Notes under the pieces: model-generated
Seen by the model: only the letters and a program-made list of their open reading frames with translations
Databases searched by the model: none
What the model was told of the DNA's origin: nothing
Assembly: GCA_031292255.1 (NCBI GenBank)
Contig: JARLHN010000002.1
Coordinates: forward strand, 1 to 51,483
From: Oryzomonas sp.
Lineage (GTDB): Bacteria; Desulfobacterota; Desulfuromonadia; Geobacterales; Pseudopelobacteraceae
Length of the DNA stretch: 51,483 bases
Direction of reading: 5' to 3'
Shown here: piece after piece, positions 40,766-44,832 of the stretch
Layout: every line of letters begins with the position of its first letter
Position numbering within the stretch: the stretch's first letter is position 1
Translations under genes and position numbers: made by a program

Positions 40766-41623
40766 TCAGGCAAGCATGCGGGAGGTGAGGCGCAGAATGC
40801 ACTGGGAGAGGTCCGGGTCGCTGATCATCTTCAGGGCCTTGTTGACCGGCAGCACCGCGCGTTTCCGCCAATCCATCTCCGGCCATTTTTTCAGCACGGT
40901 CGTGACCTTCAGAGGATAGATATAGAGCGTCTTCTCCCCTTTGCGTCGGCAGAGCACGCGGAATCCGGGGAGGCAGCTCCCGATGGTCCCGGCCTCCTCC
41001 ATGGCCTCCATGACGGCCACATCCTGCCGGGACATGTCCGGCTCCGGCTGCCCCTTGGGGATGATCCAGCGGGTCTGGGCGGTATTGGTCACGATCACGA
41101 GGTGCAGACGCCCCCCGCGAAACAGGAAGGGGAGCGCTCCGACCTGGTAATCCAGGGCCGGCCCTTCGGGAATCCCATGTATGGCGAGGGAGATGTTCTT
41201 GTAGGCCTCCATCTCCGTGATTTCCTGCCCCAGGTAGTCCGGCTTCTCGAAGCGTTCGCTTTCCTCGACCGAAGAAAACCCCACCTCGGCGACAAGCAGC
41301 GGTTCCAGATCACCCAGATAGCGGTCCACCTCCATCCGGCACGAACCGTGATCCACCAGCGAGCGGACCTTTTCCAGCCGCCGCCCCTCGGTGGAAGGCC
41401 ACAGCGCGTGAAACTGCCGTGGCGAGATATTGACCTCGGTCTCCCGACGCATGGGCCCGGCCCCCTCCTTGACGGCGAGAAAGTACTTGTCACCGAGCTG
41501 CCGGATGCGCACCTCCATGTGCTCGTCGTGGGCCAGGTACCCCTGCAGGATCGGCGTCCCGCCCTGCAATCCGTCAGGCAGGGACTTTACCAGGAATTTC
41601 CGTTCGATCTCGACCATGGTCAT
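40766..41623 (-). CDS. CYTH-NUDIX fusion protein
   Basis: 285 residues from ATG 41623, overlapping the parA-like stop as ATGA. Residues 1-155 are a CYTH domain: MVEIERKFLV signature near the start (ExExK), VRIRQLGDKYFLAVKEG, RSLVDHGSCRMEVDRYLGDLEPLLVAEVGF. Residues about 165-285 look like a NUDIX hydrolase with WIIPKGQPEPDM...VAVMEAMEEAG. The NUDIX box is partly degenerate: the first Glu is Met and the Arg before the core is Met, while the MEAMEEAG core acids remain. CYTH enzymes hydrolyse inorganic triphosphate or polyphosphate; NUDIX relatives cleave diphosphoinositol polyphosphates or nucleotides. It closes a group with ParA and CHAD genes. Confidence 0.85.
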   Translation of the reverse strand: MTMVEIERKFLVKSLPDGLQGGTPILQGYLAHDEHMEVRIRQLGDKYFLAVKEGAGPMRRETEVNISPRQFHALWPSTEGRRLEKVRSLVDHGSCRMEVDRYLGDLEPLLVAEVGFSSVEESERFEKPDYLGQEITEMEAYKNISLAIHGIPEGPALDYQVGALPFLFRGGRLHLVIVTNTAQTRWIIPKGQPEPDMSRQDVAVMEAMEEAGTIGSCLPGFRVLCRRKGEKTLYIYPLKVTTVLKKWPEMDWRKRAVLPVNKALKMISDPDLSQCILRLTSRMLA

Positions 41624-42366
41624 GGACCCGCCAGGGAAAGGATCTCGCCGCACAGCGCGCGATATGCCATCGCTGCCGTGCTGGCGTGGGAATACGCCAA
41701 AAGCGGCATCCTGTGCAGGCCCATCTTTTCCACATCCGCGGAAAACGGGATCACTGTCTTCAGGAAACCCGGATACGATACCGGAAGGTCGTCCATGATC
41801 TCCCGGTGCATCCTGTTCCGCTTCTGGACCATGGAGAAAAACGGGCGGAGCATCCCGTCGGGCAGATCCTCGTCCCGGAAGAAACCGGCCAGTTGATCCA
41901 ACGTCCTCCGTGAAAGCACGGTCGGAATGACCGGCACCAGTATCGCGTCCGATGCCCGGAACACGTTCTCCGAGAGGAGCGTGATGTTCGGCGGGCAGTC
42001 CATGAGGATCACGTCGTAATCGGGCTTGAACTCCTCCAGCACCTTCCTGAGCTGCTTGCGGCGCTTCGCCATGCCGTCGAGCAGGATGTCGAAATGGCGG
42101 TAGCCGAGGTTAGAGGGGATGATGTCGAGACCGGGGAAGTCGGACTCTCGGATGTTCCTGCGAAGCCCCTCGGCCAGGGAGTCCGCGTCGCGCATGCGGA
42201 ACTTCTCCGCGCTGGCCACGCGGAAATAAAAGGTGGCAGCCCCCTGGGGGTCCAAGTCCAGAAGAAGGGTCCGGCGCCCGGCCTCGCGAAGCGCAAACGC
42301 CAGGTTGACCGCAAGGGCCGTCTTCCCCACCCCGCCCTTGATGCTGTAAGAAGAGAGTATTTTCAT
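41620..42366 (-). CDS. ParA-family partitioning ATPase
   Basis: 248 residues with deviant Walker A KGGVGKTALAVNLA (residues 10-16), Walker A' LLDLDPQGAATFYF and Walker B ILMDCPPNITLLSENVF. The size and the short N-terminus match small ParA/MinD-like orphan ATPases that position cellular cargo, rather than plasmid ParA with an N-terminal helix-turn-helix. No parB or parS repeat is adjacent, so it is unlikely to segregate DNA. Placement between CHAD and CYTH-NUDIX genes suggests polyphosphate granules as the cargo; this is inference. Its leader contains a 205-base inverted-repeat element. Confidence 0.9.
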   Translation of the reverse strand: MKILSSYSIKGGVGKTALAVNLAFALREAGRRTLLLDLDPQGAATFYFRVASAEKFRMRDADSLAEGLRRNIRESDFPGLDIIPSNLGYRHFDILLDGMAKRRKQLRKVLEEFKPDYDVILMDCPPNITLLSENVFRASDAILVPVIPTVLSRRTLDQLAGFFRDEDLPDGMLRPFFSMVQKRNRMHREIMDDLPVSYPGFLKTVIPFSADVEKMGLHRMPLLAYSHASTAAMAYRALCGEILSLAGP

Positions 42367-42392
42367 TGTCGTGCGGACCTGCTCATATAGTT

Positions 42393-42597
42393 AGTTTCCG
42401 TCCGGAAAGGGTTCTTTTCCGCCCATTCGGCGTCAATCTTCGGGCTTGCTTGTGCGGCGCACCGATATACGTCTCCGCGCAATCCCTCGATTTCCTGGCC
42501 TGGACGACAACGAGCACAGCGAGTTGGACCGCGAAGGCGCTCCGAAGGAGGCGACCGTAAGGTTGAGTCAAAAATCCCTCCTTTCCGGATGAAAACT
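42393..42597. repeat. 205-base inverted-repeat-bounded element
   Basis: Left end AGTTTCCGTCCGGAAAGG; right end reads, on the other strand, AGTTTTCATCCGGAAAGG. The 170-base interior has no gene. The stop codon of the CHAD gene (42596-42598) lies in the right end. It separates the CHAD gene from the ParA gene inside what otherwise looks like one operon. Confidence 0.7.
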
Positions 42598-44140
42598 AGT
42601 TAGAAACCGGCTGCTTGAAGGTATGCTTGAAGGCTGCGGCCGTCGAGCCGCCGCAGAACCCTTCCAGGGCCTCGTCGATAAGGCCGCGCGCCTGTTGCTG
42701 CCTGCGGTAGAGGACGGCGACGAGCCCCCCCACCCCCAGGGCGATCTTGGACCCGGACCGTTTTTGCTCCCAATAGTTCATGAGTGATCTCTGCTGCACC
42801 AGGGCATCGTTAAACTCGCCAAGACGGTTTTGCAGCCGGCGCAGCAACCTCAGCATCTCCGCCCCCTCTTCCTTGGGAAAGAGTTCGGCGAAGAACTCCA
42901 TGAGATAGCGCAGCCTCTTGCACTCGATACGGAGCCGGTGCACCGCCTCATCCGGCGTCTCGGCCCCGATCCCCGCCGCGATCCCGCGGATCTTCAGGTA
43001 CCGCTTGTAGATGCGGCGGAAGACCAGCGCACCCACCGGGAGGCCGGCAGCCGGCGAAGGCTCGTGGTGGGTCTCCGGGGAAAAATACTCCGCCACCTCA
43101 CGGAGAAGCCGGCGGGTGGACGCTGCACGCATCTTCGAGACAGTCCGCCGCACCTCCCGTTCCCGCTCCGTCGAAAAATCTCTGAACATCCCCTCCAGGG
43201 CCGGACGGAGCACCGGGGGCAGCAGCCCCATATATTCGTCCCTCGCCAAGAGGTACACATCCAGGTCGCGCAGCCGGTTGGTCTGCCGGGCGAGATCACC
43301 GAGGATCTTGCGCATGCGCCGAGTATCCTCGGCCGGATACACGTCCTTCACCAGACTCAGCACCGACCGCGCCTTTCGCAGGCAGATTCGGTAATCGTGG
43401 AGAAATTCCGTGTCAAGGTCATTCACTATACCCGGCACGTTGCGTTCGGCGATCTCCAGGATCGCACATACGATTCGTCCCAGGGCCTCCCGGGCCGGCG
43501 TATCCATCTCAAGGCCAAAGACGGGCCGCAGGGTGTACTTCCGGGGCACGCGGCCAACATGCCGCAGCAGGGTCTCCACAGGACCGTCCCCGGACGTCCG
43601 CGCGCCACGCCGGACAAGGTGCTCCACCACCCGTGCGGTCTCTGCTTCATACCCGAACAGGGGCAGCACGCGGCAGGAATGGAGCAGATCCTCGTCCCTC
43701 CGTTTCCCCGCGGAAACCGAAGACCATTCCAGCCGGCACACGATCTTTCCCACACTATTGCGAACATCGCACCGGCGCAGGCGAAAGGTCCCCTCCGCCA
43801 CCGGTGCGAGCCCTCTCAGCCCGAGCATCCGCTCCAGCCTTGCCCGCATCGCCCCGGTCTCAAAATCTCTCCAGAATCGCCGCCTGGTCCCGGCCCGTTC
43901 CTCGCACAGCGCCGCCCCCAGCCAGCCCCCCTCGCGGGCGCACAGGTGATACGCCCCGCCGGAGCTGTAAAGAATGTGCCCGCCGAACCACAGGCCCCAC
44001 TCGAACGTATCCCAGAACGCCAGGGTCTGCGACTCCTGCGGGTGGATATCCACATCCCATTCCTCCTGCAGGCACTCCGGCCCAAAACCGCCTGGGAGCG
44101 TCAAACGAACCGATTCCTTGTTCTGCACCCTACCCCCCAC
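42596..44140 (-). CDS. CHAD-domain protein with degenerate CYTH-like N-terminus
   Basis: 514 residues. Residues about 235-500 are a CHAD domain with both conserved histidine helices: LHDYRICLRKARSVLSLVK (near 250) and VHRLRIECKRLRYLMEFFAELF (near 405). Basic residues in these helices bind polyphosphate in known CHAD proteins, which localise to polyphosphate granules. Residues 1-200 have the overall pattern of a CYTH domain but lack the ExExK motif, so they are probably inactive. CHAD next to a CYTH protein is a known pairing. It lies 133 bases downstream of the Lys/Ala/Pro-repeat gene. The product has many Arg residues (high pI), fitting polyanion binding. Confidence 0.88.
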   Translation of the reverse strand: MGGRVQNKESVRLTLPGGFGPECLQEEWDVDIHPQESQTLAFWDTFEWGLWFGGHILYSSGGAYHLCAREGGWLGAALCEERAGTRRRFWRDFETGAMRARLERMLGLRGLAPVAEGTFRLRRCDVRNSVGKIVCRLEWSSVSAGKRRDEDLLHSCRVLPLFGYEAETARVVEHLVRRGARTSGDGPVETLLRHVGRVPRKYTLRPVFGLEMDTPAREALGRIVCAILEIAERNVPGIVNDLDTEFLHDYRICLRKARSVLSLVKDVYPAEDTRRMRKILGDLARQTNRLRDLDVYLLARDEYMGLLPPVLRPALEGMFRDFSTEREREVRRTVSKMRAASTRRLLREVAEYFSPETHHEPSPAAGLPVGALVFRRIYKRYLKIRGIAAGIGAETPDEAVHRLRIECKRLRYLMEFFAELFPKEEGAEMLRLLRRLQNRLGEFNDALVQQRSLMNYWEQKRSGSKIALGVGGLVAVLYRRQQQARGLIDEALEGFCGGSTAAAFKHTFKQPVSN

Positions 44141-44273
44141 CGTCCGAACCCTGGAAAACGGTTACCCGCTGCCATCCCATCCCCATACCTGCAATTTTAT
44201 CGCAAAAACTGAGATGTGCTTGATGCGGGCTTCCGATTTATTTTTAACACCCCGGAGACCGGTGCGTTGAAAG

Positions 44274-44738
44274 TCAAGGCTTCTTGAGTGGTGCCTTGGC
44301 GCTCTCGGGCGGATTCTTGCCCAGTTTTTCCTCTACCGCCAACACGATGTACTCATTCATGCTGACGCCAACCTCGGCAGCTTCCTTTTTAATGCTCTTG
44401 CGCACCGATTTTTTCATGCTTACGAGGAACTTGGTCAGCTTGTCGTCCTTCGGTGCCTTCGGCTCTTTCTCTGCTTTTGGTGCTTTTGGTGCTTTTGGTG
44501 CTTTTGGTGCTTTCGGTGCTTTCGGTGCTTTCGGTGCTTTCGGTGCTTTCGCAGCCTTGGGGGCCTTCGGTTCAGCAACCTTCATGTCGATCTTTTCCGG
44601 CTTTGCTTTTTTTACTTTTTGTACCGTTGTCTCATCAACCTTTTTGTCCTTTTTCTTTTTCTTCGCTGCGGCCGCCTTGTCTATCGCCTGTTCTTCAGCA
44701 GGTTTCATTACGTCGGGTTTCGTTTTTTTGTCTTTCAT
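44274..44738 (-). CDS. Lys/Ala/Pro-repeat basic protein with ribbon-helix-helix-like C-terminus
   Basis: 154 residues from ATG 44738, six bases after GAGGAG; the longer frame to 44846 translates AT-rich promoter DNA. Residues 1-55 are Lys-rich (MKDKKTKPDV, KAAAAKKKKKDKK). Residues about 60-100 are KAP tandem repeats, eight in a row. Residues about 105-145 (LTKFLVSMKKSVRKSIKKEAAEVGVSMNEYIVLAVEEKL) have the pattern of a HicB/CopG-type ribbon-helix-helix: a beta strand, then a basic helix, then a GVSMNEYI turn and helix. The layout resembles histone-H1-like or PhaF-type DNA- and granule-binding proteins. It heads the CHAD/ParA/CYTH group and has its own promoter. Function is inference. Confidence 0.78.
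   Translation of the reverse strand: MKDKKTKPDVMKPAEEQAIDKAAAAKKKKKDKKVDETTVQKVKKAKPEKIDMKVAEPKAPKAAKAPKAPKAPKAPKAPKAPKAPKAPKAEKEPKAPKDDKLTKFLVSMKKSVRKSIKKEAAEVGVSMNEYIVLAVEEKLGKNPPESAKAPLKKP
44472..44550. repeat. Nine-base tandem repeat encoding Lys-Ala-Pro
   Basis: Plus-strand unit GGTGCTTTT or GGTGCTTTC, about nine units. The T-type and C-type units form two separate blocks, a sign of recent block-wise expansion. Copy-number change keeps the frame. Confidence 0.9.
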
Positions 44739-44804
44739 GGTCCTCTCCTCGTGATTGGCATCTGCTTTTACATGGGCAATGTATCTGCCATAATAGTTAT
44801 TATA

Positions 44805-44832
44805 ACTATAATACTTATAATAGTAAATGCAA
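44805..44832 (-). promoter_or_regulatory. Candidate promoter for the Lys/Ala/Pro-repeat gene
   Basis: On the minus strand TTGCAT, 16 bases, TATAGT, in a 45-base AT-rich stretch with internal symmetry (ATTATAAGTATTATAGTTATAAT). Several overlapping -10-like hexamers exist, so the exact site is uncertain. Confidence 0.45.

What the first reader, a model, noticed from the sequence alone, without database searches (positions are those of the whole stretch)
40766..44738. Candidate polyphosphate-granule partitioning system: KAP/RHH protein, CHAD, ParA and CYTH-NUDIX
Seen: four same-strand genes, with ParA and CYTH-NUDIX overlapping as ATGA. Known: CHAD proteins bind polyphosphate and go to granules; CYTH proteins cut tri- or polyphosphate; small ParA ATPases space cargo such as carboxysomes and storage granules over the nucleoid, usually through an adaptor. 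The Lys/Ala/Pro-repeat protein with a ribbon-helix-helix-like end resembles nucleoid- or granule-binding adaptors. Inference: together they could position polyphosphate granules and control their turnover. I know of no described system with this exact composition.
Basis: partly seen in the sequence, partly recalled or inferred. Interest (0 to 1): 0.7.

Follow-up and report, generated by a model that had tools for sequence, protein, structure and literature searches.

The report
Possible polyphosphate granule partitioning operon
Four neighbouring bacterial genes, kept together in the same order in two distant groups of bacteria, look like a machine that moves and digests polyphosphate storage granules, a cargo for which no ParA-type motor turned up in the literature searched.

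Summary
In detail: RHH (Lys/Ala/Pro tail), CHAD, ParA and CYTH-NUDIX lie in order on the minus strand, the last two overlapping as ATGA.

Full-length CYTH-NUDIX occurs in 20 of 141 genomes of the order; in 19, CHAD, ParA and CYTH-NUDIX share a contig. Six of six Paracoccus plasmid loci read carry RHH-CHAD-ParA-CYTH-NUDIX, the last two separate.

CHAD keeps six of six central polyP-contact residues in 17 rows. CYTH resembles triphosphatase NE1496; NUDIX resembles DIPP/DDP1, with an atypical Nudix box.

Polyphosphate or phosphate genes lie near the cassette at 12 of 25 loci, against 0 of 20 controls; the window has none.

New: repeat arrays upstream of the RHH gene suggest an RHH autorepressor. 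RHH is absent from 10 of 22 genomes with this ParA, so CHAD is the likelier cargo link.

Best reading: an ATP-driven polyphosphate-granule positioning and turnover operon resembling type Ib partition. Movement is untested. A parA-CHAD-ppk neighbourhood in Acidithiobacillus is in print without this interpretation.

The parts
44799..44827 (-). Candidate sigma-70 promoter (TTTACT - 17 bp - TATAAT) overlapping the repeat array
   Evidence: 2 mismatches in all, 17-bp spacer. In 7 of 11 upstream regions the best promoter-like pair has a TTGAC- or TTGAT-type -35 and a 17-bp spacer. Consensus match only.
44789..44822 (-). Array of four heptads (TATTATA or TATAATA) at 9-bp spacing: candidate RHH operator, possibly centromere-like
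   Evidence: passes the filter in 12 of 13 RHH loci (L080 is degenerate), in 0 of the other 30 sequences of the 697-kb set and in 0 of 3.49 Mb of block-shuffled sequence; within 2 mismatches its only place in G000, G116 and G118. Binding not tested.
44274..44738 (-). RHH-type protein with a Lys/Ala/Pro-repeat N-terminal tail (154 aa)
   Evidence: C-terminal core conserved in 11 aligned loci (of 13 RHH loci), tail variable
42596..44128 (-). Degenerate CYTH-like domain plus CHAD: candidate polyphosphate-binding granule protein
   Evidence: Pfam CHAD 6.6e-47; PDB 3e0s/6qv7 profile E about 1e-68; Foldseek 6qva 4.2e-18; N-terminal half matches ygiF and thiamine-triphosphatase folds
42372..42592 (.). 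Dispersed repeat lying between CHAD and ParA in this genome's copy
   Evidence: 48 matches in the own genome, this copy included; spacing of -4 to 19 bp in the other 12 loci measured
41620..42366 (-). Small ParA ATPase (248 aa, deviant Walker A KGGVGKT, no N-terminal extension)
40766..41623 (-). CYTH-NUDIX fusion: candidate tripolyphosphatase plus DIPP-like Nudix domain
   Evidence: separate genes in Paracoccus

Best explanation
An operon for polyphosphate granules that combines positioning and turnover. CHAD binds the granule through its basic pore (inferred from conserved contact residues). The small ParA, bound to the nucleoid as an ATP dimer, is engaged and released by a granule-bound partner, most likely the CHAD protein, so that granules are spaced or segregated by a diffusion ratchet as in McdAB (inferred). 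The RHH protein binds the repeat array at its own promoter and represses the operon (inferred from the array); with its basic tail it may also act on ParA and DNA, as ParG and omega do. CYTH-NUDIX trims the polymer: the DIPP-like Nudix domain would cut within chains and the CYTH domain would clear short chains such as tripolyphosphate (inferred). Shown here: conserved gene order, folds, kept catalytic and contact residues, repeat arrays, gene neighbourhood. Inferred: all binding, enzyme activity and movement.
For: Order and co-occurrence: Geobacter-like genomes; Paracoccus, 6 of 6 loci read. Cassette ParAs of both phyla form one clade apart from five ParA2 rows and three other plasmid ParAs (98/97; that call flags long branches among the outside rows). 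Central-cavity polyP contacts of CtCHAD (His253, Arg256, Arg260, Arg296, Arg418, Tyr419; PMC6537752, passages) map to H244, R247, R251, R287, R407, Y408, invariant in 17 of 17 aligned rows. CYTH ExExK (E4, E6, K8) and R38, R40, K51, R58, E60, E62 are invariant in 21 of 21 rows. Neighbourhood: 12 of 25 loci with PPK1, Ppx, short CHAD or PhoU; 10 of 25 with polyamine genes; 0 of 20 controls with either. pstCAB-phoU-phoB lies upstream in P. marcusii CP157, whose plasmid also has its own RepABC. Print: a conserved folD-ppk-parA-CHAD neighbourhood in Acidithiobacillus (passages).
Against: No localisation, binding or enzyme data. The window and its two closest relatives (L062, L063) show no polyP, phosphate or polyamine gene in the stretches read; the own genome's PPK1 and Ppx-type genes lie on other contigs. 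The neighbour genes tested were chosen after seeing them near cassettes, the loci are related to each other, and the controls came from four genomes, so 12 of 25 against 0 of 20 overstates the independence. Only 1 of the 6 Paracoccus loci shows phosphate genes beside the cassette. Distribution is patchy (3 of 6 genomes of the own genus). RHH is missing in 10 of 22 genomes and lies next to ParA without CHAD between in L102 and L103. G126 has CHAD and ParA but no CYTH-NUDIX match. Of six distal basic positions mutated in CtCHAD, the Arg385 equivalent is never Lys or Arg here and four others vary. The Nudix Arg is Met in 21 of 21 Geobacter-like rows, so that domain may be weak or inactive there.
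Confidence: 0.58

Rival explanations
1. The RHH-ParA pair is a DNA partition module (ParFG, delta-omega or SegAB type) whose cargo is the locus carrying the array; the polyP proteins are co-regulated passengers, or let polyP regulate segregation.
For: RHH-type protein plus small ParA plus an upstream repeat array is type Ib anatomy; RHH lies next to ParA in L102 and L103; all six Paracoccus copies read are on plasmids, though only plasmid records were searched there.
Against: Ten of 22 genomes keep ParA without RHH, and no array passed the filter in the RHH-less cassette loci scanned. CHAD lies between RHH and ParA in the other RHH loci. In G118 the cassette is on a 3.9-Mb contig, so chromosomal. 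The P. marcusii CP157 plasmid has its own RepABC. The array is a single site overlapping a promoter-like sequence, which autorepression explains.
Confidence: 0.2
2. A polyphosphate-turnover operon in which the ParA-like ATPase is a regulator or assembly factor of CYTH-NUDIX or CHAD and positions nothing.
For: Tight coupling: the CYTH start overlaps the parA stop in 11 of 12 loci where the stop was located, and the parA start overlaps CHAD in 9 of 13. P-loop relatives with non-positioning roles exist (recalled).
Against: The ParA landmarks are kept, and the nearest PDB sequences are ParA and Soj. Genes of ParA-type ATPases are often encoded near their cargo's genes (PMC10241942, passages).
Confidence: 0.15
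3. The grouping has no common function: neighbours by descent only.
For: Patchy distribution.
Against: Same order with start-stop overlaps in two phyla at 35-47% identity, CYTH and NUDIX separate in one and fused in the other.
Confidence: 0.04

Closest known systems
AlgP of Pseudomonas aeruginosa (PMC9239181; abstract and passages)
   Different: AlgP has its repeat region at the C-terminus after a helical domain; here the tail precedes an RHH-type core. ParA does not occur as a word in that paper. The 2025 review (PMC13052382, passages) lists ATP dependence for polyP granules as unknown.
McdA-McdB carboxysome positioning (PMC10241942 and PMC13052382, passages)
   Same: small ParA, cargo-linked gene neighbourhood, basic N-terminal tail on a candidate partner
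   Different: Different cargo; no search for an McdB was made and none is apparent; CHAD or RHH would be the partner
Type Ib partition ParFG / delta-omega and archaeal SegAB (PMC9178275, passages; details of ParG and omega recalled)
   Same: small ParA, RHH-type partner with an N-terminal tail, short repeat array upstream
   Different: CHAD, CYTH and NUDIX in the operon; CHAD usually lies between RHH and ParA; not shown to serve DNA
CHAD phosins, CtCHAD and E. coli YgiF (PMC6537752, passages)
   Same: CHAD fold and central polyP contact residues; a CYTH-like domain in front as in YgiF
   Different: The CYTH-like half has no conserved ExExK; operon with ParA
NE1496 inorganic triphosphatase and DIPP1/DDP1 Nudix hydrolases (PMC8064635, passages)
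   Same: folds and most catalytic residues; DDP1 acts on polyphosphates
   Different: Fused in one protein in the Geobacter-like genomes; Nudix box has Met for the first Glu (21 of 21 rows and 3 of 3 Paracoccus sequences printed) and Met for Arg (the 21 only)
folD-ppk-parA-CHAD neighbourhood of Acidithiobacillus (PMC10892726 and PMC6416229, passages)
   Same: parA conserved beside CYTH-CHAD and PPK1
   Different: The passages name no RHH or NUDIX; ParA is described there as a plasmid or chromosome partition protein; homology of that ParA to this one was not tested here

Membership tests
ParA/MinD cargo-positioning systems | deviant Walker A ATPase of the ParA family | tested here: met
   KGGVGKT invariant in 16 of 16 aligned rows; AAA_31 4e-34
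ParA/MinD cargo-positioning systems | encoded beside cargo genes | tested here: met
   CHAD in the operon itself; polyP/phosphate genes at 12 of 25 loci versus 0 of 20 controls; no further polyP gene near the window's own copy
ParA/MinD cargo-positioning systems | partner with a positively charged disordered N-terminus | tested here: inconclusive
   net charge of the first 30 residues +1 to +6 in 11 RHH rows and +6 to +7 in 3 Paracoccus rows, -5 to +3 in 17 CHAD rows; background of 508 proteins mean 0.98, sd 2.49. Disorder was not computed, and RHH is missing in 10 of 22 genomes
ParA/MinD cargo-positioning systems | nucleoid-dependent dynamic positioning of the cargo | not testable with these tools
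   needs microscopy
Type Ib DNA partition (ParFG, delta-omega) | small ParA without N-terminal HTH | tested here: met
   248 aa, Walker A at residues 10-16
Type Ib DNA partition (ParFG, delta-omega) | RHH centromere-binding protein encoded beside ParA | tested here: inconclusive
   RHH-type matches all under Pfam cut-offs (HicB 0.0029; ParG 0.0033); next to ParA only in L102 and L103
Type Ib DNA partition (ParFG, delta-omega) | repeat array near the operon | tested here: met
   binding not tested
Type Ib DNA partition (ParFG, delta-omega) | serves the replicon that carries it | tested here: inconclusive
   3.9-Mb contig in G118; P. marcusii CP157 plasmid has its own RepABC; stability cannot be tested here
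CHAD/phosin polyP-binding proteins | CHAD fold with the central polyP contact residues | tested here: met
   6 of 6 central positions invariant in 17 rows; distal basic positions only partly kept
CHAD/phosin polyP-binding proteins | binds polyP, localises to granules | not testable with these tools
   needs binding assay and microscopy
CYTH inorganic triphosphatase (NE1496 type) | ExExK and the tunnel Arg/Lys/Glu residues | tested here: met
   invariant in 21 of 21 rows; which residues line the tunnel is recalled
CYTH inorganic triphosphatase (NE1496 type) | hydrolyses tripolyphosphate | not testable with these tools
   needs an enzyme assay
DIPP-type Nudix hydrolase | Nudix box GX5EX7REUXEEXGU | tested here: not met
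   first Glu is Met in 21 of 21 rows and in 3 of 3 Paracoccus sequences printed; Arg is Met in the 21; the other Glu residues are kept, so it is called DIPP-like, not a member

The most novel reading that the evidence does not exclude
A partition machine for a polymer: a type Ib par operon (RHH, ParA, repeat array) re-aimed from plasmid DNA to polyphosphate granules by adding a CHAD granule adaptor, with the enzymes that consume the granule in the same operon, so that daughter cells inherit equal phosphate stores at the cost of ATP.
Probability: 0.4. Interest if true: 0.86.

Novelty: new variant of a known kind. Interest (0 to 1): 0.72.

Why it matters
How bacteria space and share out polyphosphate granules is open: a 2025 review (PMC13052382, passages read) tabulates one protein, AlgP, and says it remains to be seen whether energy is spent on polyP granule localisation. 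This operon names a specific ATPase, a specific granule protein and enzymes, in named strains with complete plasmid records (P. marcusii, P. aestuarii DSM 19484), which makes the question testable by single deletions. It would also extend ParA-type positioning to another storage body and show a route from plasmid partition to the inheritance of a storage granule.

Tried and rejected
A CHAD-ParA fusion suggested by one long frame in G085 (L067) is an artefact: the frame crosses a run of unknown bases.

Restriction to Geobacter-like genomes, suggested by the genome-contig scan (20 loci) and by 395 genomes of the phylum (only the own genome full length, 3 others CYTH only, at E 1e-25), was dropped when plasmid searches found Paracoccus. 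The scan used two peptide patterns and would miss relatives at about 39% identity. One locus of that scan is labelled Akkermansia (L124); probably misbinned, not checked.

The array as dispersed nucleoid sites was rejected: away from the cassette there was at most one match per genome among 19 genomes (6 in all, each with 2 mismatches), while the reversed control pattern gave 8.

A phage origin is not supported: 1 distant relative (30% identity) in viral contigs.

Three plasmid ParAs at 38-43% (Halomonas, Pontibacter, Marinobacter) have no CHAD, CYTH, NUDIX or RHH match in the stretches read; the Halomonas and Pontibacter stretches begin within 101 bp of the match, so their upstream side was not seen. 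CHAD without a ParA match in the stretch: Candidatus Thiodictyon syntrophicum (near pst genes) and two Photobacterium plasmids.

The downstream deacetylase-family gene is shared only with L062 among the loci clustered, so it is not counted as part of the operon.

The search for a described system used. The listings were capped (25 of 283 papers, 15 of 867, 12 of 511), and subscription papers and preprints are mostly not held. None listed a ParA system for polyP granules; the nearest prior note is.

Labels: PPK1, Ppx, short CHAD, PhoU, Orn/Lys-type decarboxylase, saccharopine-dehydrogenase type, PSD and CorA come from Pfam. The names carboxynorspermidine enzymes and arginine decarboxylase SpeA are recalled.

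Full report
Observation. The window is contig 21 of a 3.72-Mb, 44-contig genome. ParA and CYTH-NUDIX overlap as ATGA. Named relatives found are Geobacter, Geobacteraceae, Desulfuromonadales or Deltaproteobacteria assemblies (one is labelled Akkermansia), so I place the genome among the Geobacterales, phylum Thermodesulfobacteriota (taxonomy).

Conservation. In 141 genomes of the order, full-length CYTH-NUDIX (61-100% identity) was found in 20; ten more had only a CYTH match. The long CHAD protein was found in the same 20 and in G126, and the close ParA (75% or more) in 22. In 19 of the 20 the three genes lie together on one contig in the same order; in G082 they are spread over three contigs. 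In 13 loci measured, CHAD and ParA overlap by 4 bp in 9. The nearest CYTH start overlaps the parA stop in 11 of the 12 loci where the stop was located (L073 has a 3-bp gap; L063 not measured). Pairwise distances of the three proteins correlate (Mantel r 0.805-0.835, 0 of 2000 permutations as high), as for a unit inherited together, though vertical descent alone also gives this. In the window a dispersed repeat (48 matches in the genome, this copy included) separates CHAD from ParA.

A second phylum. tblastn against plasmid records found ParA at up to 50% and CYTH-NUDIX at 39-41% in Paracoccus. All six Paracoccus loci read (P. aestuarii, P. liaowanqingii, and four P. marcusii plasmids of three strains) hold RHH, CHAD, ParA, CYTH and NUDIX in that order, with CYTH and NUDIX as separate genes. 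In pKGP1 the annotated ParA gene runs on through the CYTH region. Identities of the P. marcusii CP157 proteins to the window are 35% (CHAD), 47% (ParA), 42% (CYTH) and 35% (NUDIX). The ParA frame of P. liaowanqingii is broken. The first gene encodes a 62-residue protein in P. marcusii CP157 and P. aestuarii; Pfam matches these weakly to ParG and RHH_1, under cut-off. In P. marcusii CP157 the cassette follows pstCAB-phoU-phoB; the plasmid has its own repABC. The cassette ParAs of both phyla form one clade (98/97) apart from the eight other ParAs included.

What the proteins are. CHAD: the nearest solved structure is CtCHAD (profile E about 1e-68; Foldseek 4.2e-18 to the polyphosphate complex). 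The six central-cavity residues whose mutation weakens polyP binding in CtCHAD (PMC6537752, passages) map, by the alignment and residue spacing, to H244, R247, R251, R287, R407 and Y408, all invariant in 17 of 17 rows. Of six distal positions also mutated there, the Lys441 equivalent is Arg in 17 of 17, the Arg385 equivalent is Tyr, His or Phe, the Lys386 equivalent is Lys or Arg in 17 of 17, and the other three are mostly but not always basic. The first half of the protein has a CYTH-like fold (ygiF 1.2e-7 with poor superposition, thiamine triphosphatases about 1e-4) without a conserved ExExK, so it is probably not an enzyme. CYTH of the fusion: nearest NE1496 inorganic triphosphatase (3.2e-41; Foldseek 5.3e-15), with ExExK and basic residues invariant in 21 of 21 rows. 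NUDIX: nearest DIPP/DDP1 (1.7e-10 and weaker; Foldseek 3.8e-6). DDP1 acts on polyphosphates, and its Arg79 helps to orient Glu80 (PMC8064635, passages). The equivalent Arg is Met in 21 of 21 rows but Arg in the three Paracoccus sequences printed. The CYTH-NUDIX model is of middling quality (mean pLDDT 75.0, pTM 0.48); the CHAD model is better (82.9, 0.68).

The RHH gene and its array. Eleven upstream regions show an AT-rich array. A scan for heptads TATTATA/TATAATA at 9-bp spacing found it in 12 of 13 RHH loci, in none of the other 30 sequences of a 697-kb set and in none of 3.49 Mb of block-shuffled sequence. In 19 whole genomes searched with up to 2 mismatches, the cassette is its only place in G000, G116 and G118; away from the cassette there were 6 matches in all, each with 2 mismatches, against 8 for the reversed control. 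The array overlaps a promoter-like pair with a 17-bp spacer in 8 of 11 regions, the window included. Paracoccus has another sequence, GACATCATGACGTCA, ending 19 bp before the RHH start (counted from the MPKSK start) in 6 of 6 loci; no other exact copy was seen in the stretches read, which leave about 23 kb of the CP157 plasmid unread. Both fit an RHH autorepressor; a centromere role is not excluded. RHH was found in 12 of 22 genomes with the ParA and in 0 of 3 cassette-less genomes of the genus. So the RHH protein is dispensable to the rest, and CHAD is the better candidate for the ParA-granule link.

Neighbourhood. With one set of tblastn thresholds, PPK1, Ppx, short CHAD or PhoU lay in 12 of 25 fetched loci, polyamine genes in 10 of 25, either in 13 of 25. 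The regions are 6.5 to 51 kb long; the 25 include the two halves of one broken CHAD and the two RHH-ParA loci L102 and L103. None lay in 20 control stretches of 20 kb from four genomes. The query genes were picked after they had been seen near cassettes, and the loci are related, so this is support and not an independent test. The window and its two closest relatives are among the loci without such genes. The own genome has PPK1 and two Ppx-type genes elsewhere.

Mechanism and rivals. The best reading is a granule positioning and turnover operon. ParA partners in other systems are said to act through positively charged disordered N-termini (PMC10241942, passages). RHH N-termini are net positive and most CHAD N-termini are not, so the partner question stays open: RHH by charge, CHAD by conservation. 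The main rival is a DNA-partition module with passengers; against it stand the RHH-less genomes, the chromosomal setting in G118 and the Paracoccus plasmid's own repABC.

What is known. AlgP spaces polyP granules in Pseudomonas (PMC9239181, abstract and passages; the word ParA does not occur in it), and a 2025 review lists the energy need as unknown (PMC13052382, passages). Two papers report a conserved folD-ppk-parA-CHAD neighbourhood in Acidithiobacillus (PMC10892726 and PMC6416229, passages) and treat ParA as a partition protein. I found no described ParA system for polyP granules in searches of an open-access library, whose listings were capped; that is not proof of absence.

Verdict. A real and conserved operon with no explanation in print that I could find. 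The polyphosphate link is strong by sequence; the positioning link is a reasoned inference.

Noticed in passing
L084-L101 (e.g. L101:8361-9901, L090:3230-4708): A second small-ParA family (about 40-43% identical) shares its stretch with an uncharacterised basic protein of about 97 residues (MSKKEK...KKKVKK, no Pfam match) in 10 of 18 loci, within about 1.3 kb in most; a phosphatidylserine-decarboxylase gene is near in 10 of 18 and PPK1 in 3 of 18 (L084, L087, L094). Perhaps another positioning pair.
   Followed up: partly
window:42372-42592 and window:40530-40700: Two families of short dispersed repeats, 48 and 27 matches in the genome, these copies included; one lies between CHAD and ParA.
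   Followed up: partly
L064, L066, L070, L072, L103 and others: Genes for polyamine synthesis recur near the cassette (10 of 25 loci), suggesting a polyamine-polyphosphate link; some of the enzyme names are recalled.
   Followed up: partly
L158:7532-8794: In P. marcusii KGP pKGP1 the annotated AAA ATPase gene runs on through the CYTH region: a possible ParA-CYTH fusion or a sequence error.
   Followed up: no
window:44274-44738: The Ala-Pro-Lys repeat number differs between the window (about 10 units) and its close relatives L062 and L063 (fewer); AlgP repeat number is also reported to vary between isolates (PMC9239181, passages).
   Followed up: no
L149:8973-9470: All four P. marcusii loci carry a second, distinct CYTH gene just downstream of the cassette.
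   Followed up: no
L155:937-9323: A Candidatus Thiodictyon syntrophicum plasmid has a long CHAD gene near pst genes but no ParA match in the stretch.
   Followed up: partly
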